From Tyzzerella sp. (GTDB taxonomy: Bacteria > Bacillota > Clostridia > Lachnospirales > Lachnospiraceae): a stretch of 64,000 nucleotides of DNA. Positions 19,595 through 56,248 of the stretch are shown here, piece after piece. A program made the translations under genes and the position numbers. Under the pieces are notes generated by a model that was not told the origin of the DNA, ran no database searches, and was given only the letters and a program-made list of their open reading frames with translations. Each line of letters opens with the position of its first letter. Within the stretch, counting starts at the first letter, position 1. The stretch spans positions 62,001 through 126,000 of the forward strand of contig JAFTWA010000007.1 in assembly GCA_017465565.1 (NCBI GenBank), read 5' to 3'.

Positions 19595-22500
19595 CTATTC
19601 TTCTTCCTTTTTACGTTTCTTAGCTACAATAAAGTATATAATACCTAAAATCACAACAATAATACCTGCAATTGAACCATAGAATAATGGTTTGTTTGCA
19701 TAAAAAATAATCAAATCACTTTGTGAAACTGTAACCTTTTCAAATGTTTCGTTATATTCATTTGTAACGCCTTCTGTATTCATAGCACAGTCACTACAGA
19801 TAATCTGAACCTTATTTTCTAAACCTTCAGGTACGGTGAATGTAATCTTTCCGTCATTATCCGCAAGATATTGTAATAATTCTTCACCTGACATTTCAAA
19901 ACGCACACTAATATCGTTTCCATTTTTATCAATCAATGGATTACCATCAGAATCAAGTACAATTACTTTAAAACTATTTAATCTTCCTCCATCATCTGTA
20001 GGAATAACTGTTACTTCTTGTTCTTGTTTCTGGTAACGACCATTTGCTTCTAAACCACTGATTGTTAATACTGGTTTTGTCTGGTCGACTACAAATGTTA
20101 CATTTAAATCCTTTACATCACTGTATGCTGTCGTATTCGCCTTGTCCGTTGATTCGATTACAATACTGTATTCTCCTTCAGCAGAAAACAATTCTTTATT
20201 GATACGGTAAGTACGTTTACTCCATTCATTAGTTCCCCCAGAAAGTTTTGTCGTATAATCGCTTCCTTCTGATAAAATTCTTCCATTTAATTTCACAGCA
20301 TATGTTTCCACTGGGTCAACGTTAATTTCTTCTAAGACAATATCCTTTTCAACACTATATACATAATATTTTTCTACAACGTCCTTTGTATTTTCATCCG
20401 CCAACGCAAAAGTGGAGCCACCCCTATTAATTGAGAACCGAACTGTTTCATACTCACTTCCATCATCGAGAACGATTCGTGAATATTCATTATTTGCATG
20501 GTCTTTTACCGTACAAACCAAAGAATAGATTCCGTCTTCTTCAAGATTACCTACGGTATACGAGTATTCTTCTCCTTCTCTAACAGTTGCCATACTTCCG
20601 AGAGAAATTTCTTTTGCAGAATATTGTCCATCTTCACCACGCACAACTGCTGATAATACAGGCTTAAATGTATTTGCATCGAAATTGGTGTCTTTAACCG
20701 AAATTGTAAAATTATATATCTTGTCCTTATTAGCCGTATTCACCTTAACATTTGATACCCTAATTGTCGGATGCTCTTTATCAATTGTTAATTCGTTTGA
20801 AACATATTCATTCATTTGGTTAGTTGATCTGTCCGAATAGCGGAAAGTAACAAAATAATCGCCGTTTTCGGTCAATTTAAATGTTCCTGTGTGTTTATCC
20901 ACACTATCATCTACCCATTTCACATTAACAGTTTGGCTCACACCATCACGAGTTACTATTACCTCTACGTCCTGTGCGAAGAAGTTTGCTTCTTGAATAA
21001 CAATAGTTCCTTGAATATCGTCAGCATAGAAACTCTGAGTGTTTACTACTTTTACAGGATTATTTAATGTAACTTGTACTGTTGGTTTGATATTATCTAC
21101 AACAATACGTTTGTTTTCTACTTTCTCTTTATTATTTCCCGAAACGTCATATGCCGTAAATTCGATTGTACCATTGAATTGTTTATCTGCACTTAACACT
21201 TCTTTAGGAATCGTAAACATTGCAGTAAATCTATAACCTTCTTGCGTAATCTGTGCTTTTTCGATAATTGCATCAAGCAGTTCTGCATTTACGTTACTTA
21301 CACCTATACTGTTAATATAACTATACAAAAATTTATTGATTCCCGAGGTTACATCTTCACCTGAAATTGTAACTTTCATCTGCCCATTGTAGTAACCATA
21401 TTGTGTCGCTTCAATAGCCGTTTCAAATACACTTGTACTATATGTTACTTGTAAATTACTTGGCGCAACTGTATCTACAGTGAATAAATCTTTTGTATAT
21501 TCTGCACTTGAGCGCGCTGCAAGGTCTGCAAATTTAATATCAAATGCATAATTTGCATCTTGGCTGTATTTGATAGTAGCTGTGTGAACATCTCCTTCAT
21601 GTGTCCATGAGGCAGGATTTTTGAACAGGTCACTATAATACTTAGCCAAAGTATCATTCCCACCATCAACTAAAACATCTTTTCCTGTTACATCAACTGC
21701 TTCCACAATTACATCTACATCTTTTGCATCAAAATTATGTTCTGTAATCGTAATTGTTGCTTGCTGCTGCGCATTCAAATAATCACGATTCTCAATTGTA
21801 TTGATAATATTTTTATTATCATACGTTACAGCTACAATTGGATTCACATTATCTACTACAAATTCAGTTGCATATTGTTTTGCAACTCTTGTTGCCAAAT
21901 CCATGTAATCTACTTTAAATACATAATCTGCATCTTCTTTAAATGTGATTTTTGCTGTATGAACATCACCTTCATTTGTCCAATTCTTTGGGGCTTTTAG
22001 CAATGCTGCATAATCATCTAATTCGCCATTTGTTTCTAATTCTCTTGTTGCTGTCACAATTGCTACAACATCTTCTGCTCGGAAATTGCGCTCTGTAATT
22101 GTAACTGTTGCCGTTCTAGATGCTTTATAATATTTTCCATTTGCAACGTTGTTATTATCGTATGTTACGCTGATTATTGGATCTACATTATCAATTACAA
22201 ACTCTTCTGATGAATATTGCTCCGCTGCTCTTCCTGATAAGTCTGTGTAATCTAATGTCCATTGATAATTTGCATCTTCTTTGAATTCGATTGTGATTGT
22301 GTGTTCATCTTCATCATGTGTCCAACTATCATTATTTTTTAATATTAATGCGTAGTCCTCAATTGCAGATGCATCTAATGCACGTGTTGATGTTATGACC
22401 GCAACTATGTCTTTTGCATTAAAGTTATGCTCTATGATTGTAATTGTTGCTTTTCTTGAAGCATCGTAATACTTTTCGTTTGCAACATCTTCATTGTCAT

Positions 22501-25500
22501 ATACTACAGTTTTAATAACTGGATCCACATTATCAATTACAAACTCCTCTGATACATATTGTTGCGCTGTTCTTCCTGATAAATCTGTACAATCCAATGT
22601 CCATTGATAATTCGCATCTTCTTTGAATTCGATGATTGTTGTATGCACATCACCATTATGTGTCCAATTTTTATCGTCTTTTAATTTTGACGCATAGTCT
22701 TCAATCACATCTTGATTCAATTCTCGAGATGTTGTCACTACCGCTACAATATCTTCTGCTCTGAAATTATGTTCTGTAATTGTAATTGTTGCAGTTCTTG
22801 ATGCTTTATAATACTTACCATTGGCAGTGTCATTATTATCATACGTAACCCGAATTACTGGATCCACATTATCAATTACACTATCATCTGATACACATTG
22901 TGTTGCTGTTCTTCCAGACAAATCTGTATAGTCAATCGTAAATTTGTAATCAGCATCCTCTTTAAATGTAATTGTTGCAGTATGTGTATCTCCGTTATGT
23001 GTCCAATTGGTATTATCTTTTAATCTTGATGCATAGTCTTCAATTACCTCTTTATTAAATTCTCGAGATGTTGTCACCACAGCTACCACATCTTTTGCAT
23101 CAAAGTTATGCTCTGTGATTGTGATTGTTGCAGTTCTGGACGCTTTATAATACTTGCCATTGGCAGCACTATTATTGTCATATACTATCATTTCGATTAC
23201 TGGATCCACATTGTCGATTACACTATCATCTGATACACATTGTATTGCTGTTCTTCCAGATATGTCTGTATAATCAATTGTAAACTTATAATCAGCATCC
23301 TCCTTAAATGTAATTGTCGCAGTATGTGTATCTCCATTATGCATCCAATTCTTATCATCTTTTAATAATGCCGCATAATCTTCAACTGCCTCTTTATTTA
23401 ACTCTCGAGATGTTGTCATTACGAGCAGAACATCTTCTGCCCTAAAGTTATGCTCTGTGATTGTAATCGTCGCTGTTCTAGAAGCTTTATAGTACTTTCC
23501 ATTTTCTGAACTATTGTTGTCATATACAACTTCTTCAATTACTGGATTCACATTATCAACTACAAATTTTGCAGACTTATATTGTTCTGCCACTCTTCCT
23601 GATAAATCCGTACAGTCTAATGTCCATTGATAATCCGCATCTTCCGTAAATGTCACTGTAGTTGTATGTACATCGCCATCACTATTCCAATCTGCTTTCA
23701 AGAGCGCTTCATAATCTTTCACAGATACATCTGACAACACATTATCAACCGTAACCACCGGAATAACTTTACTCAAATCAAAGTTATGTTCTGTAATTTT
23801 AACTTCAAAAGTCTTTGAACCACTATAATATGTTTTTTCAACAGGTGTTACTTCGATAGTAGGTGCTGTCCTATCAATTCGGACTTCTTGTTTATATGTC
23901 TGTATTGCACGCTCAGTAACATCTACAAAACTTGCTGTTACAACATAATCTCCTTCTTCTGAAAATAGATATTCTCCAACCCACTTTCCAGACACCTCAT
24001 CTTTGGTCCATGTTACTGAAGCTTCGGTTTCATTTACTTTAACAATTGGTTTATCTGCTAAATCAAAGTTTACTTCTTCAATTGCAAATTTAATAGTAAT
24101 ATCATCTTGTGTATAAATTATATTATTTGTTGTTGTATACACTCCGTCATAATCTACAGTCAATTCAGGAGTTACTGTATCAATAACAATTACTTTTTCA
24201 TTTTCATCTTCATCTTTGTCTACAATATTTTGATTGTGCCCTGCAACATCTTCTACAGTAAAAGTAATTGTATCTCTGAATTGAGGTTCAATAGTAAACT
24301 CGTAACTCGCACTTTTTTCATTAATAGTTAAATCAGCTGCATCAACGGTGAACTCTTTGCCTGTATTCTTATATGTGTATACAAACTTTGTGATACCAGA
24401 AATATCATCTGCCGCTGTAAGTGTCACTGTGACAGGGGCCTCATAGATTCCAAAAGATATTTTTTCCAAAATCTTCTTCCATGTAGGTGTCGCACAAGAT
24501 ATAACTAAATCTTTTGGTACTGTTTTATCGATTTTAATATCACTGATAGCAATCGCATCTGTAATTGCACCATTTTCATCACGAAGATATACACTTACAT
24601 TATTTGTACCTTCCTTTTCGACTGTAACAGATTCGGCCCACGTATTGCCCGTAATTGCATTTGAATAACTAATTTCATATCCTTCTGGTGCTGTAATTGT
24701 AACGTCACCTGTGTACCAACCACTTTCATTTTTCGTATCACCTGACAAAGTGTATGGCTGTGTCGGAGTCTCTAAATTATCTACCTTCAGTGTATATTCC
24801 GCCGAACACTCATTATAGCTATCATCAGATGGCTTTGTTGCCTTTACAGTAATCGTTCCAATTTTTCCATTTTGTAATGAAACTACACCAGTTGAATCGA
24901 CACTTGCATCTAATGGATTTTCTCCAACAATCTCATAGGAAATTGCAGCAGTTCCATATTTTTCTCCAACTGGATTTGCGACATTAGTGTACGTTTGTTT
25001 TCCATAATACACACTAATCTCTGCTCCATTTTCGAATTCGATTGCTTGGTCTGCCTTTTTAATTGTAACTGAATACTCAGCAGATGTTACTTTGTATTTA
25101 TCATCTGCTGCTTTTGTCGCTTTTACTTTTACGGTACCGGCTTTTTTGATTGTTAATTCGCCTGTTGATGCATTGATATCTGCAACATCGCCGCCTTCAA
25201 CAATCTCGTACACAGCAGCATTACTACTTTGTCCGCCAGTTACAGCATTCAAAAATTTATTTCCATTATCATTGTATGTAATATTTTCTGGTGCTTCAGT
25301 TGTAAATTTGAATCCAGTTTGTTCTGCTGGCAAAACTTCTATTTCTTTCGTAATAGCAGTTGCTTCATTATAAGTATCATCACCTAATCTAGATGCTTTT
25401 AGTATAAATTTCCCTGCTTTGTTTAATGTCAACGTACCATCTGTCGCAACACTAGCAACATCTGTTCCTTCAGTAATTGTAAATGTATAGTCTCCTGTAC

Positions 25501-46762: not shown

Positions 46763-46823
46763 TACAAATTAGAAAAGGATGTTGCTAGATTAAAAATTCA
46801 AGAATATAATCAAGGGTTTTTAG

Positions 46824-46849
46824 CCACCACTTTTATGTGGTGGTTTTTT
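46824..46849 (+). terminator. Terminator of hpf inside the left arm of LIR1
   Basis: CCACCAC, loop TTTTAT, GTGGTGG and six T. Confidence 0.9.
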
Positions 46850-47621
46850 GTGAGATTTATACAGTGTTGCATACAAATTCATGTAAGTATTCTGGGATTT
46901 TTCTTATACAAAATTTGGGTTGTTGCAAGGAAAATAAATTGTCTTTTTTAGTCCTTTTCCCATGATTTTTAAGTTGATTTTTCTTTATGGCACAAAAGTA
47001 GTCTTAGAATCCAACAAATTCACAAAAATTATTAGCATGGAATACAAGTTTTTCTGCATAAAGAAAATCACAAATGAAATTCATCTCTTGATTCATATTT
47101 ACCGTTGTGTGAAGTTAGGCCTTCAGCTGCAAGTTTCTCTAAAGTGTCCCATTCTCAAGAAGTTATTCACATACTTCAAACGGACTCACAGCCAAAAGTT
47201 CCACGGCCGGCATATGCGTGAAATAACATAGAGAGATTCTGTGAAAAGTTGTTGAATGCATATGCCAGCCATGGAACTTTGTCTGTTTGAGCCGTTTTCC
47301 GTATGTGCTTTTTTGAGAATAGGGAGACTAAAAGAAACATAACAACTTGCAGATAACTTCACACAACAGTAAATATGAATCAAGAGATGAATTTCATTTG
47401 TGATTTTCTTTATGCAGAAAAACTTGTATTCCATGCTAATAATTTTTGTGAATTTGTTGGATTCTAAGACTACTTTTGTGCTATAAAGAAAAATCAACTT
47501 AAAAATCATGGAAAAAGGACTAAAAAAGACAATTTATTTCCCTTGTAACAACCCAAATTTTGTATAAGGAAAATCCCAGAATACTTACATGAATTTGTAT
47601 GCAACACTGTATAAATCTCAC

Positions 47622-47648
47622 AAAAAAACCACCACATAAAAGTGGTGG
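47622..47648 (-). terminator. Terminator of the PBP gene inside the right arm of LIR1
   Basis: Mirror copy of the hpf terminator: minus strand CCACCAC, TTTTAT, GTGGTGG and seven T. Confidence 0.9.
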
Positions 47649-47702
47649 CTAAAAACCCTTGATTATATTCTTGAATTTTTAATCTAGCAACATCCTTTTA
47701 TT

Positions 47703-50162
47703 TTACTCCGTAGGAGTTATTGTATTGGATTGGTCTCCTGGTAATATAGCATCTAAACCTTGGTTAACAAGATCTTGAAGCTGCTGCTGCAACGACTGTT
47801 CCTGAGCTTCCTTTTCTTTATCTGGATGTCCAGGACAGCTTTGCTCTGGAATCGTTCCTTCTGCAAAGTATTCTGTTTTCTTCGAACAGAAATCTGTACT
47901 TGCAAGCTTACCAGTCGCTGTACAGATTGTTTTTCGCTGAACCGTCTCTGGCATTTCAAAAGATTTTTCTTCGTAACCTTCGTGGATACGCTCCATAATC
48001 TTTCTCCAAATTACCAGGTGATAGCTCTGGTTGTCAATCTGCTTCTCCATTGGTGAGTGGTCATCATAGCCAGTCCATACAGAGGCTGTGAGATATGGGG
48101 TATATCCAGAGAACCATAAGTCTACAACGCCTGTAGTTGTACCTGTCTTACCTACAACAGGCATGCCTGAGAATTTTGCTCTTCCACCAGTACCAATTGA
48201 GGAATTCACAACATCGCTCATCGCATCTGTCATCAGTGCTGCTGTTGTCTCTTTCATAGCCACATGTGTCTTTGGTGTATTCTCATACAACAGGTTTCCA
48301 TCATGGTCATAAATTTGTGTATAGAAAATTGGCTCTGTGTAAACACCCTTATTTGCAATGGAAGCATATGCCGCTGTCATTTCCAAATTATAGATACCGT
48401 TTGTAATTCCACCGAGAGCAGTCGACTGAACGATATCTGTCGTTGGAAGCGTTGTAAATGCAAAGTTTTCTGTCAAGTACTGATATCCAAGTGCTGGTGT
48501 AATTTCAGTAAGCTTCTTAACGGTACAAACGTTTGCCGAACGCGCAATACATTCACGAATAGTCATAGCTCCTCTGTATGAGCTTCCCCAGTGATTATTT
48601 ACCGGAGTTCCGTCTGCATAATTGAATGGCTCATCCACAATCACGGTGGCAAGTGTGTCTCCAAATGAATCCAGTGCCGGCACGAAAGTCGATAAAACCT
48701 TGAAGCAAGAGCCTGGCTGTCTCGTAGACTGTGTCGCACGGTTAAGACTCATGCTTTCTGTTTTTTCGCCACGACCGCCTACGACAGCTTTTACATATCC
48801 CGTAGCCTGATCCATAACAACAACTGATGCCTGTGGCTGTGCGAAAAGTGTGATACGTGTCTGTACCGTATCATTCACACTCGTCTTCAAAGTCTCAATA
48901 TACTCTTCAATCATTTTATTTGCTTTTTCTTTTGAAGAGAATGTAGTTCCGTATTTTCCATATTCCGGATAATTACTTGTCACATAACCATTCAGACCAT
49001 TGTGGTCATAATGCTTTTGGGTACCATCCTCGTGGGTGATTGTAATGGCGCAGCTCACACCCCACTTTATGTTCGATGGATAATTATCATCGTCATTTAT
49101 TTCTTCTTCGCAGATTTGCTGCATTTCGATGTTCTGAGTTGTGATAATTTTAAGTCCGCCACTGTATACAGCATTGTAAGCCTGTGACTCCGTATATCCA
49201 AGCTCTGAGACAAGGTCTTCCTGAACCTGCTTTGCAACCTCATCAATAAAGTATGAGTTTGCAGCCTGGCTTTCTGTGTATTCCGCATTCACGAGCTGAA
49301 TACGTTCATAGACATTATCCGCCATTGCCTCATCATATTCTGCCTGAGAAATCATTTTCTGCTCCAGCATATCGCCGAGAACCTTCTCACGGCGCTTTTG
49401 ATTGGCTTCCGGATTGGAAATAGGATTATATCCGTTCGGACTCTTTGTAATACCTGCAATTGTAGCAGCTTCTGCCAATGTCAGTTCACTGACATCTTTT
49501 CCAAAATAACGTTTCGAAGCAGCCTGCACTCCCAGAGTATTTTGTCCGAGGTTGATTGTATTTAGATAGTTTTCTAAAATCTCATCCTTATCAACTATTT
49601 TTTCAATTTGAACTGCAAGATACCATTCCTGAATCTTACGCTCGACTTTTTCCCATCTTGTTTCTTGAACAAAGTTTGGAAAAACACTATTCTTGATTAA
49701 CTGTTGTGTAATGGTACTGGCACCCTGTGAAAAATCACCAGAAGTAAGACCTACAACACCAGCTCTCACAATACCCTTAAGGTCAATTCCGTTATGTTCG
49801 CGGAAACGAGAATCCTCTACGGCAATGAATGCGTCTTCCAAAATATCAGGAATCTCTTCAATCGTTGCATACTCGCGGTTAGAACCAGCAGCTACAAACG
49901 TGTCAATAATCGTCTCTCCATCATCTGCATAAGCAGTAGTTGTAAATGCAGAAGGTTTGATAGTATCTGCAGTAATCTGCGGTGTGTCATCAATTATCTT
50001 TTTGAAAAGAAGTGCGCCGCCAGCGATGCCTAATGCAACAACAAATAAGCATCCAACCAAAAAGGCTTTAAAAAAACGTACTCCCATTCTTTTTTTCTTC
50101 ATGAGCGCTTTAGACTGAATCGTTCTGCAGCGTCTTGAAGTTGTCTTTTTTCCATAATTCAT
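47703..50162 (-). CDS. Class A penicillin-binding protein (PBP1A type)
   Basis: An 819-residue bifunctional peptidoglycan synthase: short basic cytoplasmic tail, one membrane helix (about 29-51), glycosyltransferase GT51 domain (AVEDSRFREHNGIDLKGIVRA, GASTITQQL, KIQEWYLAVQIE) and a transpeptidase domain with the active Ser in PGSCFK, SAN in ARSANVCT and KTGTT. The C-terminal tail is Gln/Pro/Thr-rich. AAAGGAGG precedes the ATG. It is convergent with hpf across the first palindrome. Beta-lactam target. Confidence 0.95.
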   Translation of the reverse strand: MNYGKKTTSRRCRTIQSKALMKKKRMGVRFFKAFLVGCLFVVALGIAGGALLFKKIIDDTPQITADTIKPSAFTTTAYADDGETIIDTFVAAGSNREYATIEEIPDILEDAFIAVEDSRFREHNGIDLKGIVRAGVVGLTSGDFSQGASTITQQLIKNSVFPNFVQETRWEKVERKIQEWYLAVQIEKIVDKDEILENYLNTINLGQNTLGVQAASKRYFGKDVSELTLAEAATIAGITKSPNGYNPISNPEANQKRREKVLGDMLEQKMISQAEYDEAMADNVYERIQLVNAEYTESQAANSYFIDEVAKQVQEDLVSELGYTESQAYNAVYSGGLKIITTQNIEMQQICEEEINDDDNYPSNIKWGVSCAITITHEDGTQKHYDHNGLNGYVTSNYPEYGKYGTTFSSKEKANKMIEEYIETLKTSVNDTVQTRITLFAQPQASVVVMDQATGYVKAVVGGRGEKTESMSLNRATQSTRQPGSCFKVLSTFVPALDSFGDTLATVIVDEPFNYADGTPVNNHWGSSYRGAMTIRECIARSANVCTVKKLTEITPALGYQYLTENFAFTTLPTTDIVQSTALGGITNGIYNLEMTAAYASIANKGVYTEPIFYTQIYDHDGNLLYENTPKTHVAMKETTAALMTDAMSDVVNSSIGTGGRAKFSGMPVVGKTGTTTGVVDLWFSGYTPYLTASVWTGYDDHSPMEKQIDNQSYHLVIWRKIMERIHEGYEEKSFEMPETVQRKTICTATGKLASTDFCSKKTEYFAEGTIPEQSCPGHPDKEKEAQEQSLQQQLQDLVNQGLDAILPGDQSNTITPTE

Positions 50163-50269
50163 GAGTTTTGCCTCCTTTATTTCGAGAAATATTATAACAA
50201 ACTTGTCCTGTTAAATAAAGCCAAAAATAAAAAGTTCCCATTTTAATAGGAAAAAATTAAGAATTTATT

Positions 50270-50297
50270 TTGAAAATCAGCAAAATACTGGTATAGT
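50270..50297 (+). promoter_or_regulatory. Sigma-A promoter of yigZ
   Basis: -35 TTGAAA (50270-50275), 16-bp spacer, -10 TATAGT (50292-50297), 30 bp before the ATG. Confidence 0.55.
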
Positions 50298-50327
50298 AAT
50301 AGAAAACACATGAAAAGGTGAGCAAAT

Positions 50328-50984
50328 ATGCTAAGTCAATATAAAACAGTTTACTCAGGCGGAGAAGCCGAAATAATAGAAAAAAAATCCCGTTTCATCG
50401 CAACAGTGCACCCTGTGAAAACAGAGGAAGAAGCCATTGCATTTATCGAAGCTATGAAAAAGAAATATTGGAATGCGACGCATAACTGCTCTGCATATGT
50501 AATTGGAGACCATTTCCAGATTCAGCGCTGCAGTGACGATGGCGAGCCAAGTGGAACCGCCGGAAAGCCAATGCTTGATGTGCTTTTGGGAGAAGCCATT
50601 CATGATGTAGTAGTCGTAGTCACCCGATACTTTGGCGGCACACTTCTTGGAACCGGCGGACTTGTAAGAGCATACTCAAGCTCGGCCAAAGAAGGTCTTC
50701 TGGCAAGTAAAGTGATTACCAAAATGCATGGTCAAAAGCTTGTGATTCAGACAGACTATACAGGACTCGGAAAAATCCAGTATATTCTGGGGCAGAGGGG
50801 ACTTACGATTCTCGATTCCGTGTATACCGACAAAGTAGAATTGCAGGTATTACTTCCAGAAGATGAGATAAAACCTGTCATGTCAGAAATCACGGAGGGA
50901 ACCAATGGACAGGCTGTGATGGAGCTTAAGGAAGAATGCTATTTCGCAAAAATCGATGGAGAAATGAAAATATTCGAGGATTAA
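50328..50984 (+). CDS. yigZ: YigZ/IMPACT family protein
   Basis: A 218-residue protein. The N-terminal IMPACT domain has KKSRFIATVHPV, NATHNCSAYVIG, SDDGEPSGTAGKPML and VVVTRYFGGTLLGTGGLVRAY, the family hallmarks; the C-terminal ~70 residues are the DUF1949 ferredoxin-like domain. Proteins of this family bind nucleic acid or ribosomes; the bacterial function is not settled. The start has AAAGGTGAG upstream. Its 3' end abuts the second palindrome. Confidence 0.93.
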   Translation: MLSQYKTVYSGGEAEIIEKKSRFIATVHPVKTEEEAIAFIEAMKKKYWNATHNCSAYVIGDHFQIQRCSDDGEPSGTAGKPMLDVLLGEAIHDVVVVVTRYFGGTLLGTGGLVRAYSSSAKEGLLASKVITKMHGQKLVIQTDYTGLGKIQYILGQRGLTILDSVYTDKVELQVLLPEDEIKPVMSEITEGTNGQAVMELKEECYFAKIDGEMKIFED

Positions 50985-50985
50985 A

Positions 50986-51687
50986 AAAGTGCTCTACACA
51001 CATGATTGTTTGGCTCTAAAACAAATGTTGAGGTTTGAAAATCACGGGGATTAAATGTTATAAAAATACAAAATTCAAGAGGAGGTGCATGTTTGCATTT
51101 CCTCTTATATTTTTGCTTAGAGTTTCAGCCAATGTTCATTCTTCAAGAAGGCACATCTGCAACCTTTTGTTGATTTTCTTACAGCCTTATGAGACAAAAA
51201 GACGGTTGTTCAAAGCACGTTCAAACAGTCACTAATTTCCGAGGTAAAATATGCGGTTCAAGGTCTAGGCTACAGATTCTGGAAAAGTCTACGTGGGCTA
51301 CGTTCAGTAATGTGATTAGGAAAGCGCTTCAAGAACTTACTTCGTGCAGACAACTTTCCGCGCTTTCCCATTTACTGAACTGTAGCCACTAGACTTTACA
51401 CAGAATCTTTCGATGCCCTTTCACCGCATATTTTGCCTCGGAAATTTTGGCTGTGCGTTTGCTTTGGACAACTGTATAAATCTCTTGTCTCATAAGGCTG
51501 TTAGAAAATTCGAAAGGTGAAGCCGTGCCTTCTTGAAGAATGAACATTGGCTGAAACTCTAAGCAAAAATATAAGAGGAAATGCAAACACGCACCTCCTC
51601 TTGAATTTTGTATTTTTATAACATTTAATCCCTGTGATTTTCAAACCTCAACATTTGTTTTAGAGCCGATTGTGTAGGGCACCTTTT
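50986..51687. repeat. Giant imperfect palindrome LIR2 (about 700 bp)
   Basis: Inverted arms around a centre near 51336. Outer 120 bp are nearly identical: GGCTCTAAAACAAATGTTGAGG at 51012 onward mirrors 51620-51667. Inner parts diverge but still pair, e.g. CAGCCTTATGAGACAA on both sides (51181 onward and 51487-51502). Inward TTGAAA-18-TATAAA boxes (51035-51064 and mirror) are followed by an AAGAGGA/TCCTCTT hairpin (51077-51106). The core from 51455 to 51402 (minus) matches the core of LIR1 and LIR3 (ACAGCCAAAA, ATATGCG, CATCGAA, GATTCTG). It lies between the convergent yigZ and glucokinase genes and fills the 720-bp gap. Confidence 0.85.
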
Positions 51688-51706
51688 ATGTAGACTTCTT
51701 TATGTA

Positions 51707-52648
51707 TTAAGATAAGGCTAATTTTGCTGCACCGTAAATTCCGGCATCATTTCCAAGCTCAGCTAAAGCAAATTTTACTTCTTTTTGCGCAAAGAATGCT
51801 CTTTCCAAATAAGGACCTTCCACGAAGCCAAACAAAATTTCCCCTGCTCTTGAAACACCGCCGCCAATTACAAAGATATCCGGGTCGACAACAGCAGAAA
51901 CTGTTGCAAGACCATAGCCTAAATATCTTCCAAATTCTTCTGCAATTTCAATTGCCACTTTATCGCCTGCTTTTACTGCATCAAACACATCCTTTGCAGA
52001 AATGCTATCCATATTCAAGACAGTTTCATCTGTGTTTCCTTCTAATCTTCTCTTTGCAAGCCGCACAACTCCTGTAGCTGATGCATATTGTTCTAGACAA
52101 CCTGTTTTGCCACATCCACATTTGTCTGTTTCATTGTAGTCCACACAAATGTGTCCGATTTCTCCGGCCGCTCCATTTGTACCCACAAGAATCTCACCAT
52201 CAACAATAACGCCACCGCCAACACCTGTTCCAAGTGTTACCACAACAAGGTTCTTGTAGCCTTGGCCGCCGCCTTTCCACATTTCGCCCAGCGCAGCAAC
52301 ATTTGCATCATTACCAATCACCGATGTTATGCCCGTCAGTTCTTCTAACTCACGTTTCACTTCCTTATAGCCCCAGCCGATATTGGCAGAACCATTTACA
52401 ACACCTTCTTTATTCACTGGTGCCGGAATTCCCATACCGATTCCAACAACGTCTTCCCTGCAAACGCCCCGCTCTGCTAATTTCGCATGGATAGCTGCTG
52501 CAATATCCGGGAGAATATTCTCACCCTGATTTTCTGTTCTTGTCTCAATTTCCCACTTATCAAGCACTTCTCCATCTGCCTGGAAAAATCCCATTTTCAC
52601 TGTTGTTCCGCCAAGGTCTACGCCAAAGCAATATTTCATCTCGCTCAT
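51707..52648 (-). CDS. ROK family glucokinase
   Basis: A 313-residue sugar kinase. ATP-binding DLGGTTVKMG (11-20), the ROK motif with GEIGHICVD, and the zinc-binding cysteine cluster CGCGKTGCLEQYAS are present; EIGH supplies a zinc-binding His and the Glu of glucose binding. It phosphorylates glucose to glucose-6-phosphate. It follows hprK by 11 bp in the uvrC-hprK-glk run. The combination with hprK points to sugar metabolism and its control. Confidence 0.9.
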   Translation of the reverse strand: MSEMKYCFGVDLGGTTVKMGFFQADGEVLDKWEIETRTENQGENILPDIAAAIHAKLAERGVCREDVVGIGMGIPAPVNKEGVVNGSANIGWGYKEVKRELEELTGITSVIGNDANVAALGEMWKGGGQGYKNLVVVTLGTGVGGGVIVDGEILVGTNGAAGEIGHICVDYNETDKCGCGKTGCLEQYASATGVVRLAKRRLEGNTDETVLNMDSISAKDVFDAVKAGDKVAIEIAEEFGRYLGYGLATVSAVVDPDIFVIGGGVSRAGEILFGFVEGPYLERAFFAQKEVKFALAELGNDAGIYGAAKLALS

Positions 52649-52659
52649 TTTCTTGTCTC

Positions 52660-53586
52660 CTATTTCTTACGTGTTAAGCTTTCTTGTACTCTTCTGTATA
52701 ATTCTTGTGCTGCGTTGTAACCCATTTGTTTTTGTCTGTGGTTAATTGCAGCGGATTCAACGATAATCGCAACATTACGGCCTGGACGGATTGGAATCGA
52801 ATAGCATACCAGTTTATTTCCAAGAAATTCTGTATAATTATCCTCTAATCCTAATCGGTCGTACTCTTTATGCTTATCCCATTCTTCGAGAGTGATAACC
52901 ATATCTATCGTCTGCGTTTCCTTTACACTCTGCACACCAAACAGCATCTTCACATCCACAATACCAATACCGCGCAGCTCAATTAGGTGCTTTGTGATGC
53001 TTGGTGCAGAACCCACCAGCGTATCATCACTGACTCTTCGAATATCCACAACATCATCCGTCACAAGACGATGACCACGCTTAATCAATTCCAAAGCGGC
53101 CTCACTCTTACCGATTCCACTTTCTCCCATGATTAAAACGCCGACACCATAAACGTCAACCAATACACCATGAATGGAAATACTTGGTGCCAATTGTTCG
53201 TTCAGCCAGCGAATCAGCTCTGCCTGGAAAGGCGACGTCTTTTGCTCTGTTGAAAATATCGGGATTCCGGCTTTATTCGCTTGTTCCAGCATTTCCTCAT
53301 CTGGTTGAATTTCTGTTGTATAAATCAAACAAGGAATCCCATAAGATAATAATTCTTTGTAAACTTCCCTCTTTCGCTGTGCCTCCAAGGTTTCCAGATA
53401 TGTGTATTCCACATATCCTATAATCTGTACTCTCACAGAATCGAAATGGTCAAAATATCCTGTCAGCTGCAGAGCCGGACGGTTAATGTCTGGCACAGTA
53501 ATATATCTCTCAGTCAGTTCAATATCTGGTGTGAGATTTTTTAAATTCATTCGTTCTACTAAATCTGTAATTTTTACACCTGGCAT
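52660..53586 (-). CDS. hprK: HPr kinase/phosphorylase
   Basis: A 308-residue bifunctional enzyme that phosphorylates HPr on Ser46 and so starts carbon catabolite repression in Firmicutes. The C-terminal catalytic domain has the Walker A GESGIGKSEAALELI (near 155-169), the DDVVDIRR acidic motif and the HprK signature ELRGIGIVDVKMLFG; the N-terminal domain is of the usual regulatory type. Between uvrC (40 bp) and the glucokinase gene (11 bp). Confidence 0.96.
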   Translation of the reverse strand: MPGVKITDLVERMNLKNLTPDIELTERYITVPDINRPALQLTGYFDHFDSVRVQIIGYVEYTYLETLEAQRKREVYKELLSYGIPCLIYTTEIQPDEEMLEQANKAGIPIFSTEQKTSPFQAELIRWLNEQLAPSISIHGVLVDVYGVGVLIMGESGIGKSEAALELIKRGHRLVTDDVVDIRRVSDDTLVGSAPSITKHLIELRGIGIVDVKMLFGVQSVKETQTIDMVITLEEWDKHKEYDRLGLEDNYTEFLGNKLVCYSIPIRPGRNVAIIVESAAINHRQKQMGYNAAQELYRRVQESLTRKK

Positions 53587-53626
53587 GTCCTACCCTCTCA
53601 TTCCTAGTATTCTACCTCTTAGTATA

Positions 53627-55465
53627 TCACTTATGGAAAAAACTGTACACTTCCTTTGCAGATTTTTCATTCATGGAAGGTACTTTTTTCAAATCCTCTA
53701 CACTCGCATTTTTTAATTCTTCTATATTCTCAAAATATTTCATGAGTGCTTTTCTTCTTGCCGGACCAACCCCTTTAATATCATCCAGCACCGAATGCAC
53801 CTGTCCCTGGCTTCTAAGCTTCCGGTGAAACTCAATTGCAAACCGATGGGCTTCGTCCTGAATCCTTGTAATTAATTTGAACCCTTCTGAATTCCGGTCA
53901 ATCGGAATCTCAACATTGTTATAGTAAAGTCCTCTGGTTCTGTGGTTGTCGTCTTTTACCATGCCGCACACTGGTATCTGCAAATCCAATTTACCCAGCA
54001 CTTCTAAAGCAATATTCACCTGTCCGCGGCCACCATCCATCATAATTAAATCAGGAAATGCTGTAAAGCTTCCCAGTTCTTTTCCATTTTCTATCTCGTC
54101 AAGTCCATGCTTAAAACGTCTTGTAAGCACTTCCTCCATGCTTGCGTAATCATCTGGACCCTGAACACTTTTTATCTTAAACTTGCGATAATCGGTTCTC
54201 TTCGGCTTCCCTTTTTCATACACAATCATGGAGCCGACAGAAGCAAAGCCACTGGTATTCGAAATATCATAGGCTTCCATTCTTACAATATTCTTTAGCC
54301 CCAATAACGCTTCGATTTCTTTCACTGCACCAATGGTTCGGCCCTCTTCGCGTTTCAGACGTTCCTTGTCTGTATTCAGAATCAAGGCTGCATTCTTTCT
54401 CGCAAGCTCCACTAATTTTTCTTTTTCACCCTTCTTTGGCACTCGAATATGCACGCGGTGTTCCCGCTTTTTCGTGAGCCACTGTTCTAATAGTTCGTGC
54501 TCTTCCAGTTCTTCATGGGTCATAATTTCTGCTGGCACAAAAGGCGACCCTGCGTAAAATTGTTTGATAAAGCTGGCAAGCAGCTCGCTCTTGGACGCAT
54601 CCGCATTTCGAAAGAAGAAATGATCGCGGCCGATTAATCTTCCACCCCGGATAAAGAAAATCTGCACCACCGCATCCTCCGCATCCTTCGCAACTGCCAC
54701 AATATCGCGGTCCTCGCCCCTGCTATCTGTAATCTTCTGCTTCTGGGCAATCTGCTTCACACTATGAATCAGTTCCCGGTATTCAATAGCCCGCTCAAAC
54801 TCCATATTTTCAGAAGCCTCAAGCATCTTTGCTTCCAGGTCTTCTAAAACGCTGTCGTAATGCCCATTCAAAAAACGCAGTACTCCATCAATCGATTTCC
54901 GGTATTCTGCTTCCGAAATATATCCCTGACATGGTGCCTTGCACTGCTTAATATGATAATTGAGGCAAGGTCTGTCTTTCCCCATGTCTTTTGGAAGATT
55001 TCGGTTACAGCTTCGTATATTATATAACTTCTGAACCAGTTCAATCGTATCCTTTACAGCTCCTGCACTTGTGAATGGTCCAAAATATTTCGCCTTATCC
55101 TTCTGCATGGTTCGGGCCAGCATCACTCTCGGATACGCCTCATTTACCGTCACTTTAATAAAGGGGTAGCCCTTATCGTCCATCAGCATCGTGTTATACT
55201 TCGGTCTGTGCTCCTTAATCAGGTTACATTCCAATACCAATGCTTCCAGCTCTGAGTCTGTTACGATATATTCAAATCGCCGGATATGAGTTACCATCTG
55301 GTCGATCTTAGCACCTTTATTTCGGCTTGCCTGAAAATATTGTCTTACACGGTTCTTTAGGCTAATCGCTTTTCCAACATATATAATCTGGTCCTTCTCA
55401 TCGTGCATCAGATACACGCCTGGTTTCGCAGGAAGTTTCTTTAGTTCTTCTTCAATGATAAACAT
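53627..55465 (-). CDS. uvrC: Excinuclease ABC subunit C
   Basis: A 612-residue nuclease of nucleotide excision repair; it cuts both sides of a UvrB-bound lesion. The GIY-YIG domain at the N-terminus ([18 protein letters not shown]), a UVR motif ([16 protein letters not shown], near 205), the RNase H-like endonuclease domain ([29 protein letters not shown]) and a C-terminal helix-hairpin-helix ([19 protein letters not shown]) are all present. ATG 55465 is preferred, as the longer frame has no ribosome binding site. First gene of uvrC-hprK-glk. Confidence 0.96.
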
Positions 55466-55530
55466 ACCACACCCTGCCTTTCTTTTTGCTTTAGCACTAT
55501 CATACCACAATGTTACTTATAAAGCGAGGA

Positions 55531-56248
55531 AGGGATTGTTGCAAAATTAAAAATCAAAAATATAATCAAGGATTTAGGGTACTGGCAGGTACTTTTGCCC
55601 GTCTATACCCAAAATCAGACGATTTTTAATGGTTTTCGCTAAATGAATACCCAACCACAGAATGAAATGGCATCTCCAAATGCGATTCACCATCATATAG
55701 AATTAGGCCTTCGGCTCCAAGTTTCTCTAAAGTGTCCCATTTTCAAGAAGTTATACACATACTCTAAGCGGACTTACAGCCAAAAGTTCTGTAGTCAGCA
55801 TATGCGTGAAATAACATCGAAGGATTCTGCAAAAAGTCTTGCAACTGAAGTTCGGAAAATGTGCAAACACGGGAACATGTTTGAGCACTTTGTGCGAGTT
55901 TGTGAGTGTGCTTGCTAACATCATTTCCGAACACAGTTGCGTAGCCTTTTTCAGAATCTGTCGCAAAGTTGTTGAACGCATATGCTGGCTGCAGAACTTT
56001 GTCTGTTTGAGCCGCTTTTCGTATGTACTTTTTTGAAAATGAGGACACTAAGAGAAACATAGTAGCCTGCAGATAATTCCATATGATGGTGAATCGCATT
56101 TGGAGATGTCATTTCATTCTGTGGTTGGGCATTTATTTAGCGAAAACCATTAAAAATCGTCTGATTTTGGGTATAGACGGGCAAAAGTGCCTGCCAGTAC
56201 CCCAAATCCTTGATTATATTTTTGATTTTAAATTTTGCAACAATCCCT
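55531..56248. repeat. Giant imperfect palindrome LIR3 (about 718 bp)
   Basis: Inverted arms around a centre near 55890. Tips AGGGATTGTTGC at 55531 and its complement at 56248 mirror over about 150 bp with few changes, then the arms pair less perfectly toward the middle. The tips resemble those of LIR1 (ATTAAAAAT, AATATAATCAAGG) and carry an inward TTGCAA/TATAAT box pair (55539-55566). A nested hairpin (GGGTA...TACCC, 55577-55610) follows. The inner part from AGGCCTTC (55707) to GATTCTG (55829) is about 85 percent identical to LIR1 by eye. Unlike LIR1 and LIR2 it lies between codirectional genes: after yedF and before uvrC. It fills the 830-bp gap except 65 bp at the left and the yedF terminator. 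Confidence 0.88.

What the first reader, a model, noticed from the sequence alone, without database searches (positions are those of the whole stretch)
46773..56248. A family of giant palindromic elements (LIR1-LIR3) within 10 kb
Three intergenic elements of about 927, 702 and 718 bp are each built as two inverted arms. LIR1 and LIR3 share their tips (GATTGTTGC-like ends, AATATAATCAAGG) and long inner parts; LIR2 differs at the tips but its core matches the others (ACAGCCAAAA, ATATGCG, CATCGAA, GATTCTG in the same order). Each fills a whole gap between housekeeping genes. All have the same plan: inward promoter-like box, local hairpin, long arm, common core. If transcribed they would form very long double-stranded RNA. 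They do not match a known insertion sequence, BIME, or large bacterial ncRNA that I know.
Basis: partly seen in the sequence, partly recalled or inferred. Interest (0 to 1): 0.82.

Follow-up and report, generated by a model that had tools for sequence, protein, structure and literature searches.

The report
Giant hairpin transposons with conserved core
These three giant DNA palindromes belong to a large, apparently undescribed family of gene-less jumping elements, whose ends and central hairpin are conserved while their long arms change freely but stay complementary to each other.

Summary
The palindromes are real: LIR1 46773-47699, LIR2 51012-51667, LIR3 55531-56248. Twelve more complete ones and pieces at eight contig starts lie in the same draft genome. 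Nothing in Rfam matches, and the ORFs tested carry no Pfam domain. Covariance models reveal a conserved central hairpin (loop CTGTTTGAGCGNAGCGAGTT plus asymmetric internal loops). Model R3, with no sequence from the window's genome, still finds LIR3. It matches 60 of 397 genomes of the family (inferred Lachnospiraceae) and 21 of 398 of the phylum, the own genome counted in both; 39 of 41 base pairs show two-sided changes. In genus g71, elements of about 289 bp with ends GTTACAGTTCAC have exact 8-bp target duplications in 10 of 16 fetched copies, and 9 bp in one more. A copy in the window's own genus has ends GTAACAGTTCAGCC/GTTACAATTCAGCC and an exact 8-bp duplication. So these are gene-less, MITE-like transposons. 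Unusual are their size (to 1,075 bp), arms that differ between copies (down to 38% identity) yet stay 95-99% self-complementary, and a core conserved across genera behind different ends. Against: no duplication at 15 own-genome elements, no autonomous partner found, and the core's role is unknown. Filed as a new variant of a known kind.

The parts
46773..47699 (.). LIR1, whole palindromic element (927 bp). By length and alignment its core lacks about 127 nt against the copy on contig C48.
46782..46810 (+). LIR1 left inward promoter-like site TTGCTA-17-TATAAT
   Evidence: consensus match only
46822..46845 (+). LIR1 left inward terminator-like hairpin
   Evidence: consensus match only
47118..47353 (+). 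LIR1 core remnant between the long arms; orientation from alignment with the C48 and C32 cores
47627..47650 (-). LIR1 right inward terminator-like hairpin
   Evidence: consensus match only
47662..47690 (-). LIR1 right inward promoter-like site
   Evidence: consensus match only
51012..51667 (.). LIR2, whole palindromic element (656 bp)
51077..51106 (+). LIR2 left inward terminator-like hairpin
   Evidence: consensus match only
51270..51414 (-). LIR2 apical core domain (model R2, 147.9 bits; C2:113270-113414 less 62000). LIR2 was one of the sources of R1 but not of R2.
51573..51602 (-). LIR2 right inward terminator-like hairpin
   Evidence: consensus match only
55531..56248 (.). LIR3, whole palindromic element (718 bp)
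55539..55566 (+). LIR3 left inward promoter-like site TTGCAA-16-TATAAT
   Evidence: consensus match only
55824..55956 (+). LIR3 conserved core hairpin found by R3, a model with no sequence from this genome (25.1 bits, E 0.00097 over 137 kb); R2 gives 55816-55963, 111.2 bits
56213..56240 (-). LIR3 right inward promoter-like site TTGCAA-16-TATAAT
   Evidence: consensus match only

Best explanation
LIR1-3 are copies of a non-autonomous, gene-less transposable element that is palindromic from end to end (a giant, foldback-type MITE). Each has three zones: terminal inverted repeats, long arms whose sequence is free but whose two halves stay complementary, and a conserved central hairpin core. Shown: TIRs and 8-bp target duplications in young relatives, many copies per genome, arms that change in step, and a core conserved and covarying across genera. 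Inferred: a DDE-type transposase acting in trans on the TIRs moves them. Arm complementarity is renewed at the DNA level, by template switching between arms or fold-back copying during replication or transposition. The core is kept because it acts as a folded single strand (ssDNA or RNA) bound by a protein that the element needs to move or to be tolerated. The window's copies look old: they show no target duplication, and by eye the flanking 8 bp of several own-genome copies are mirrored rather than directly repeated.
For: TSDs: 16 copies of genus g71 fetched; 10 have exact 8-bp direct repeats at the palindrome ends (one, L328, with an ambiguous boundary), a further one 9 bp. The nine elements of exactly 289 bp compared were chosen among these and all have exact repeats. 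In the window's genus, L079 (610 bp, G003) has an exact 8-bp repeat with TIR GTTACAATTCAGCC, and L024/L065 an AT-rich 8-bp repeat. Zones (nine copies): arm columns 38-76% identical in the six pairs printed, self-complementarity of arm windows 0.95-0.99, core 88-95% identical. Arms change in step: LIR1 against C32, 67 mirrored, 13 single-arm, 0 parallel; LIR1 against C48, 20, 16, 0; C48 against C32, 47, 20, 1. Core: 39 of 41 pairs with two-sided changes, 87.3% of cells paired against 59.3% shuffled, 35-50% in slid controls. Spread. No neighbour gene recurs beyond 11 of the loci examined; flanking-gene layout is mixed (of 80 loci 16 at edges, 18 convergent, 34 tandem, 12 divergent).
Against: No TSD of 7 bp or more at the ends of any of 15 own-genome elements; the one 7-bp hit lies inside C32. 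Five of 16 g71 copies gave none by script. No autonomous element with these ends was found; nine small contigs fetched for it read wholly or partly as N. The own-genome ends (GTTGCAAAAT) only resemble GTTACARTTCA, and other genera show other ends. Mirroring is not universal: C33 against C9 gives 5 mirrored and 29 single-arm sites, and the g71 set has 264 parallel beside 653 mirrored cells over non-independent pairs. A strand bias of G-U over A-C in the inner 75 pairs (115:46) vanished in the covarying stems (36:33), so RNA-level selection on one strand is not shown. No clean empty site was obtained.
Confidence: 0.8

Rival explanations
1. They are host genes for a giant hairpin RNA with a cellular job (protein-binding scaffold, RNase III substrate, insulator), and the repeats at the ends are incidental.
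For: Core conserved and covarying across genera. Loops conserved while stems vary. L056 and L057 sit in what reads as the same intergenic site in two species, arms 77% alike. Tips with promoter-like and terminator-like sites.
Against: Exact 8-bp duplications, scattered multi-copy distribution (337 of 397 family genomes had no match), mixed orientation. Strand bias not upheld. No expression data.
Confidence: 0.1
2. They are oversized transcription terminators or insulators of ordinary genes, grown by palindrome-extending replication errors.
For: LIR1 and LIR2 lie between convergent genes; inward terminator-like hairpins. The apical loop sequence also occurs, by eye, in a few short terminator-like hairpins. 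By eye the outermost stems differ between copies but are palindromic with A and T runs.
Against: Target duplications and shared ends in relatives. In 80 loci the layout is not restricted to gene ends: 12 of the 64 classified are divergent (crude ORF calls). The g16 copies have T-run then stem then A-run, the reverse of a terminator (by eye).
Confidence: 0.07
3. Assembly artefacts or chance palindromes.
For: The own genome is a draft of 62 contigs, and several copies sit at contig starts.
Against: LIR1-3 lie inside a 131-kb contig; independent species, among them single-contig assemblies (G079, G264), have them; BLAST E-values down to 0.
Confidence: 0.01

Closest known systems
[quoted passage not shown] Chunjie of Geobacter uraniireducens and QMITE2 of Coxiella burnetii (PMC10969869; passages and sections 2.1 and 2.2 read)
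   Same: No transposase gene, TIRs, direct repeats in young copies, many intergenic copies, strong hairpin when single-stranded, shortened derivatives (by eye L333-L336).
   Different: Up to 1,075 bp here (review: typically under 500 bp); palindromic over the whole length with freely varying arms; a hairpin core conserved across genera. Whether Chunjie, also from the group formerly called Deltaproteobacteria (recalled), has this core was not tested: its sequence was not at hand.
REP, BIME and REPIN palindromes (PMC3733652, PMC3116915: search listing and start of abstract only)
   Same: Repeated intergenic palindromes.
   Different: REPs are 20-40 bp (abstract of PMC3733652); these are 190-1,075 bp with TIRs and 8-bp duplications in relatives.
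Foldback-type transposons of eukaryotes (recalled)
   Same: Long inverted arms without coding capacity.
   Different: Bacterial; conserved structured core. No tested relation.
Rickettsia palindromic elements, about 150 bp (named in PMC10969869, passage read)
   Same: Dispersed palindromes.
   Different: Those integrate in genes; these lie mostly in intergenic gaps here. Sequence relation not tested.

Membership tests
MITE | No transposase or other coding gene inside | tested here: met
   Four ORFs of at least 80 aa inside LIR1 and LIR3 have no Pfam match at E 0.01; LIR2 holds no ORF of 80 aa or more
MITE | Terminal inverted repeats | tested here: met
   The palindrome runs to the ends; GTTACAGTTCAC ends in g71 copies
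MITE | Target-site duplication, in relatives | tested here: met
   10 of 16 g71 copies exact 8 bp and one 9 bp; L079 in the window's genus exact 8 bp
MITE | Target-site duplication, at the window's copies and the other own-genome elements | tested here: not met
   0 of 15 own-genome elements; review section 2.1 says such repeats wane with age
MITE | Many dispersed copies | tested here: met
   15 complete elements in the own genome; up to the eight candidates scored per genome elsewhere
MITE | Length typically under 500 bp | tested here: not met
   656-927 bp in the window, up to 1,075 bp in the genome; 289 bp in g71. The review says 'typically', so this is not a strict criterion.
MITE | Autonomous IS with the same ends | tested here: inconclusive
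   GTTACTGTTCAG stands about 100 bp from seven contig ends of G393, as an unassembled IS would; interiors not seen
Rfam ncRNA families | Match to any of 4227 families | tested here: not met
   None at gathering in the window, none at E 1 over the LIR stretch; in relatives only sub-gathering matches
REP/BIME | 20-40 bp units | tested here: not met
   Element sizes
REP/BIME | GTAG or CGTC tag | not tested
   No scan was made
IS200/IS605-type elements moved as ssDNA without duplication (recalled) | No target duplication | tested here: not met
   8-bp duplications in relatives

The most novel reading that the evidence does not exclude
A single conserved hairpin module has been captured by several unrelated transposon families (different terminal repeats in different genera) across Bacillota and perhaps Desulfobacterota. 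The elements renew one arm from the other each time they copy, through a fold-back single-strand intermediate, so that arm sequence is free, complementarity is exact, and the core is the recognition and turn-around signal. This would be a hairpin-copying mode of bacterial transposition.
Probability: 0.2. Interest if true: 0.87.

Novelty: new variant of a known kind. Interest (0 to 1): 0.64.

Why it matters
If right, a gene-less mobile element that is common in a major gut family, and in scattered other Bacillota, has not been catalogued: no Rfam match, and nothing in the paper searches listed. Its three-zone design separates what must be kept (ends and core) from what is only required to pair (arms). 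That makes two questions testable: how bacteria keep kilobase palindromes perfect when long palindromes are usually unstable (recalled), and why a parasite without genes carries a structure conserved across genera.

Tried and rejected
Strand-specific RNA selection: the inner 75 pairs of the oriented elements gave G-U to A-C 115:46 (arms 85:100), but the covarying stems of alignment A3 gave 36:33. The first figure came at least partly from conserved loop positions, so I dropped it.

'Arms totally replaced at the same site' in L056/L057 (my notes): alignment shows 77% over 213 columns, so I withdraw 'totally different'. The statement that arms can be unrelated rests on LIR1 against LIR3 and on g71 copies at 38%.

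Phage or plasmid origin: LIR1 has no match in phages or plasmids. The bare loop motif occurs in 54 viral contigs, none with a giant hairpin by the self-BLAST used. So the loop alone is not diagnostic, and the single pattern hits outside Lachnospiraceae (Halanaerobiales, Empedobacter, Thiothrix, Gastranaerophilales) may be chance, even though R3 scores them at 35-37 bits. They were selected by the motif that the model contains.

Associated gene: ORFs at 95 loci clustered; the largest cluster spans 11 loci at varied distances. I dropped the idea of a linked gene.

Empty site next to hpf: nine of ten genus genomes have hpf. In the stretches printed, hpf 3' flanks of five congeners were in view, none with an LIR by eye; for three loci the stretch shown may be the other side. 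The neighbouring genes differ, so it is no clean empty site.

Autonomous partner: C1:621815-624331 of G393 is a chance pair of ends around ubiD/ubiX-like genes (named from recall of the sequence). The ends GTTACTGTTCAG gave no match in plasmids, phages or viral contigs. L342 shows a decayed stretch only.

Skipping-rope RNA (recalled) considered: no Rfam match, and the paper search on the name listed only unrelated papers among the 10 of 15 shown. Papers: searches gave nothing describing these elements, judged from listings; only PMC10969869 was opened.

Limits: the genome search scored at most eight candidates per genome in the large runs and drew a sample of the family and phylum, so counts are lower bounds. 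Of the 95 stretches, 80 were listed and inspected; 63 of these 80 have a self-complementary alignment of at least 186 columns across the motif, and several of the other 17 are cut by contig ends.
Full report
OBSERVATION. The three palindromes are present at the stated places: LIR1 46773-47699, LIR2 51012-51667, LIR3 55531-56248, each aligning to its own reverse complement at 82-90% over its whole length, with ungapped arms 95-100% complementary. They fill the gaps between housekeeping genes. Promoter-like sites point inward at both ends of LIR1 and LIR3, and inward terminator-like hairpins follow in both arms of LIR1 and LIR2. The region as a whole has no excess of promoter-like sites, so this rests on their mirrored placement.

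COPIES IN THE GENOME. DNA searches of the own draft genome (3.22 Mb, 62 contigs) and self-alignment of the fetched stretches give 15 complete palindromes of 381-1,075 bp, LIR1-3 included, and pieces at the starts of eight contigs (C2, C5, C10, C14, C16, C26, C29, C37). Several copies lack the middle of the core; LIR1 is one of them. A 380-nt stretch of a same-family genome lies exactly in a record titled Lachnospiraceae bacterium RGIG4622, from which I infer that the window is from Lachnospiraceae.

A CONSERVED CORE. A covariance model of the apical domain built from the own genome (R1) found two other genomes among 397. A second model with sequences of two other species of the genus (R2) matched 5 of 10 genus genomes and 25 of 397 family genomes at E 0.01, both counts including the own genome. 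The matches lie, with few exceptions, in the middle of hairpins of about 190-650 bp. A pattern taken from them hit 95 stretches in the genome collection, 80 listed: mostly Lachnospiraceae, with several copies each in some genomes, and several each in two Desulfobacterota-type bins and one Clostridia bin. From 23 of these sequences, none from the window's genome, alignment A3 was made. On a structure drawn from their own folds, 39 of 41 pairs show changes on both sides, 87.3% of cells pair against 59.3% in shuffles and 35-50% when slid, and the covariation score is 0.705 against 0.204. Because the structure came from these sequences, the share of paired cells leans in its favour; the two-sided changes are the stronger evidence. 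The model R3 from A3 finds LIR3 in the window (55824-55956, 25.1 bits), other own-genome and same-genus copies (25.7-44.7 bits) and L056/L057 (84.4 and 76.9 bits). LIR1 and LIR2 are not among its matches at E 0.01. R3 matches 60 of 397 family genomes and 21 of 398 of the phylum, the own genome counted in both.

TRANSPOSITION. In two genomes of genus g71 I fetched the 16 copies listed. Ten have exact 8-bp direct repeats at the palindrome ends (L328 with an ambiguous boundary) and one more a 9-bp repeat; five gave none by script. One of those five (L319) shows an offset repeat by eye, and L329 may not have been scanned because its loop deviates. The end is GTTACAGTTCAC and variants. Three of five coreless derivatives also show an exact 8-bp repeat by eye. 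In the window's genus, L079 (G003) has ends GTAACAGTTCAGCC/GTTACAATTCAGCC and an exact 8-bp repeat; L024/L065 has an AT-rich one. Outside g71, scans of the other fetched loci gave only these two and two 7-bp cases, L235 and L249, with another end, GATGCC. In the own genome 0 of 15 elements have such repeats. By eye, the eight bases outside GTTGC are mirrored in several copies, which would fit later correction of the flanks, but this is not shown.

THREE ZONES. In nine 289-bp copies with exact duplications, the outermost 12 nt and the core are conserved between copies (core 88-95% in six pairs), while the arms fall to 38% identity yet remain 95-99% self-complementary. Own-genome copies show the same concerted change: LIR1 against C32, 67 sites changed on both arms, 13 on one arm, none in parallel. 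C33 against C9 goes the other way (5 against 29), and g71 copies also share left-right differences (264 parallel against 653 mirrored over non-independent pairs). So correction is frequent but not immediate. A G-U excess on the loop-bearing strand was not upheld in the covarying stems (36:33), so selection as RNA on one strand is not shown and DNA-level correction is sufficient for the arms.

WHAT IT IS. The simplest account is a non-autonomous DNA transposon, palindromic throughout, moved in trans through its ends. The core must matter, since it outlasts the arms and recurs behind different ends in different genera (GTTACARTTCA in g1 and g71; GATGYYRGGGNC in three other genomes, the last read by eye). 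I think it most likely works as a folded single strand bound by a protein, in transposition or in tolerance by the host; this is inference. No partner gene recurs near the copies, and no autonomous element was seen.

COMPARISON. It meets the main features of MITEs in relatives and fails two at the window's copies (no duplications, unusual size). A review of prokaryotic MITEs (PMC10969869, passages and two sections) describes the same basic architecture at typically under 500 bp and loss of repeats with age; the passages seen do not describe conserved cores across genera or freely varying palindromic arms. No Rfam family matches. Paper searches listed nothing that describes these elements. I therefore file it as a new variant of a known kind.

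Noticed in passing
window 21531-23718: Long direct repeats in several registers, spacing about 350 bp, 69-77% identical.
   Followed up: no
L070 about 1247-1322 (G003:C40): The outer 37 bp of the left arm (GGTTACAATCAGCC...CTCACG) stand twice in tandem.
   Followed up: no
L226, right end of the element: About six tandem copies of a 19-bp unit (GCCTTGGAACAGAGGGTAC).
   Followed up: no
L053, near the end of own-genome contig C54: A palindrome tip is interrupted by another sequence that reads like the start of an insertion sequence (recalled, not tested).
   Followed up: no
L333, L334, L336 (G393), L335 (G079): Very short derivatives (48-238 bp) with the same ends; 8-bp repeats exact by eye in three, 7 of 8 in L335.
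   Followed up: partly
L308 (G454:C3:738500-756500): Five R3 matches within about 13 kb of a 1.8-Mb genome of another family; the reason for the cluster is unknown.
   Followed up: no
L122-L175, viral contigs: TGTTTGAGCGAAGCGAGTT recurs in two fixed contexts (GATAAACA..., ACCAGTCGAAC...) without a giant hairpin.
   Followed up: partly
L331, L332, L341 (G393 contig ends): GTTACTGTTCAGAGG stands about 100 bp from contig ends, followed by different sequences: probably collapsed insertion sequences with ends like those of the hairpin elements.
   Followed up: partly
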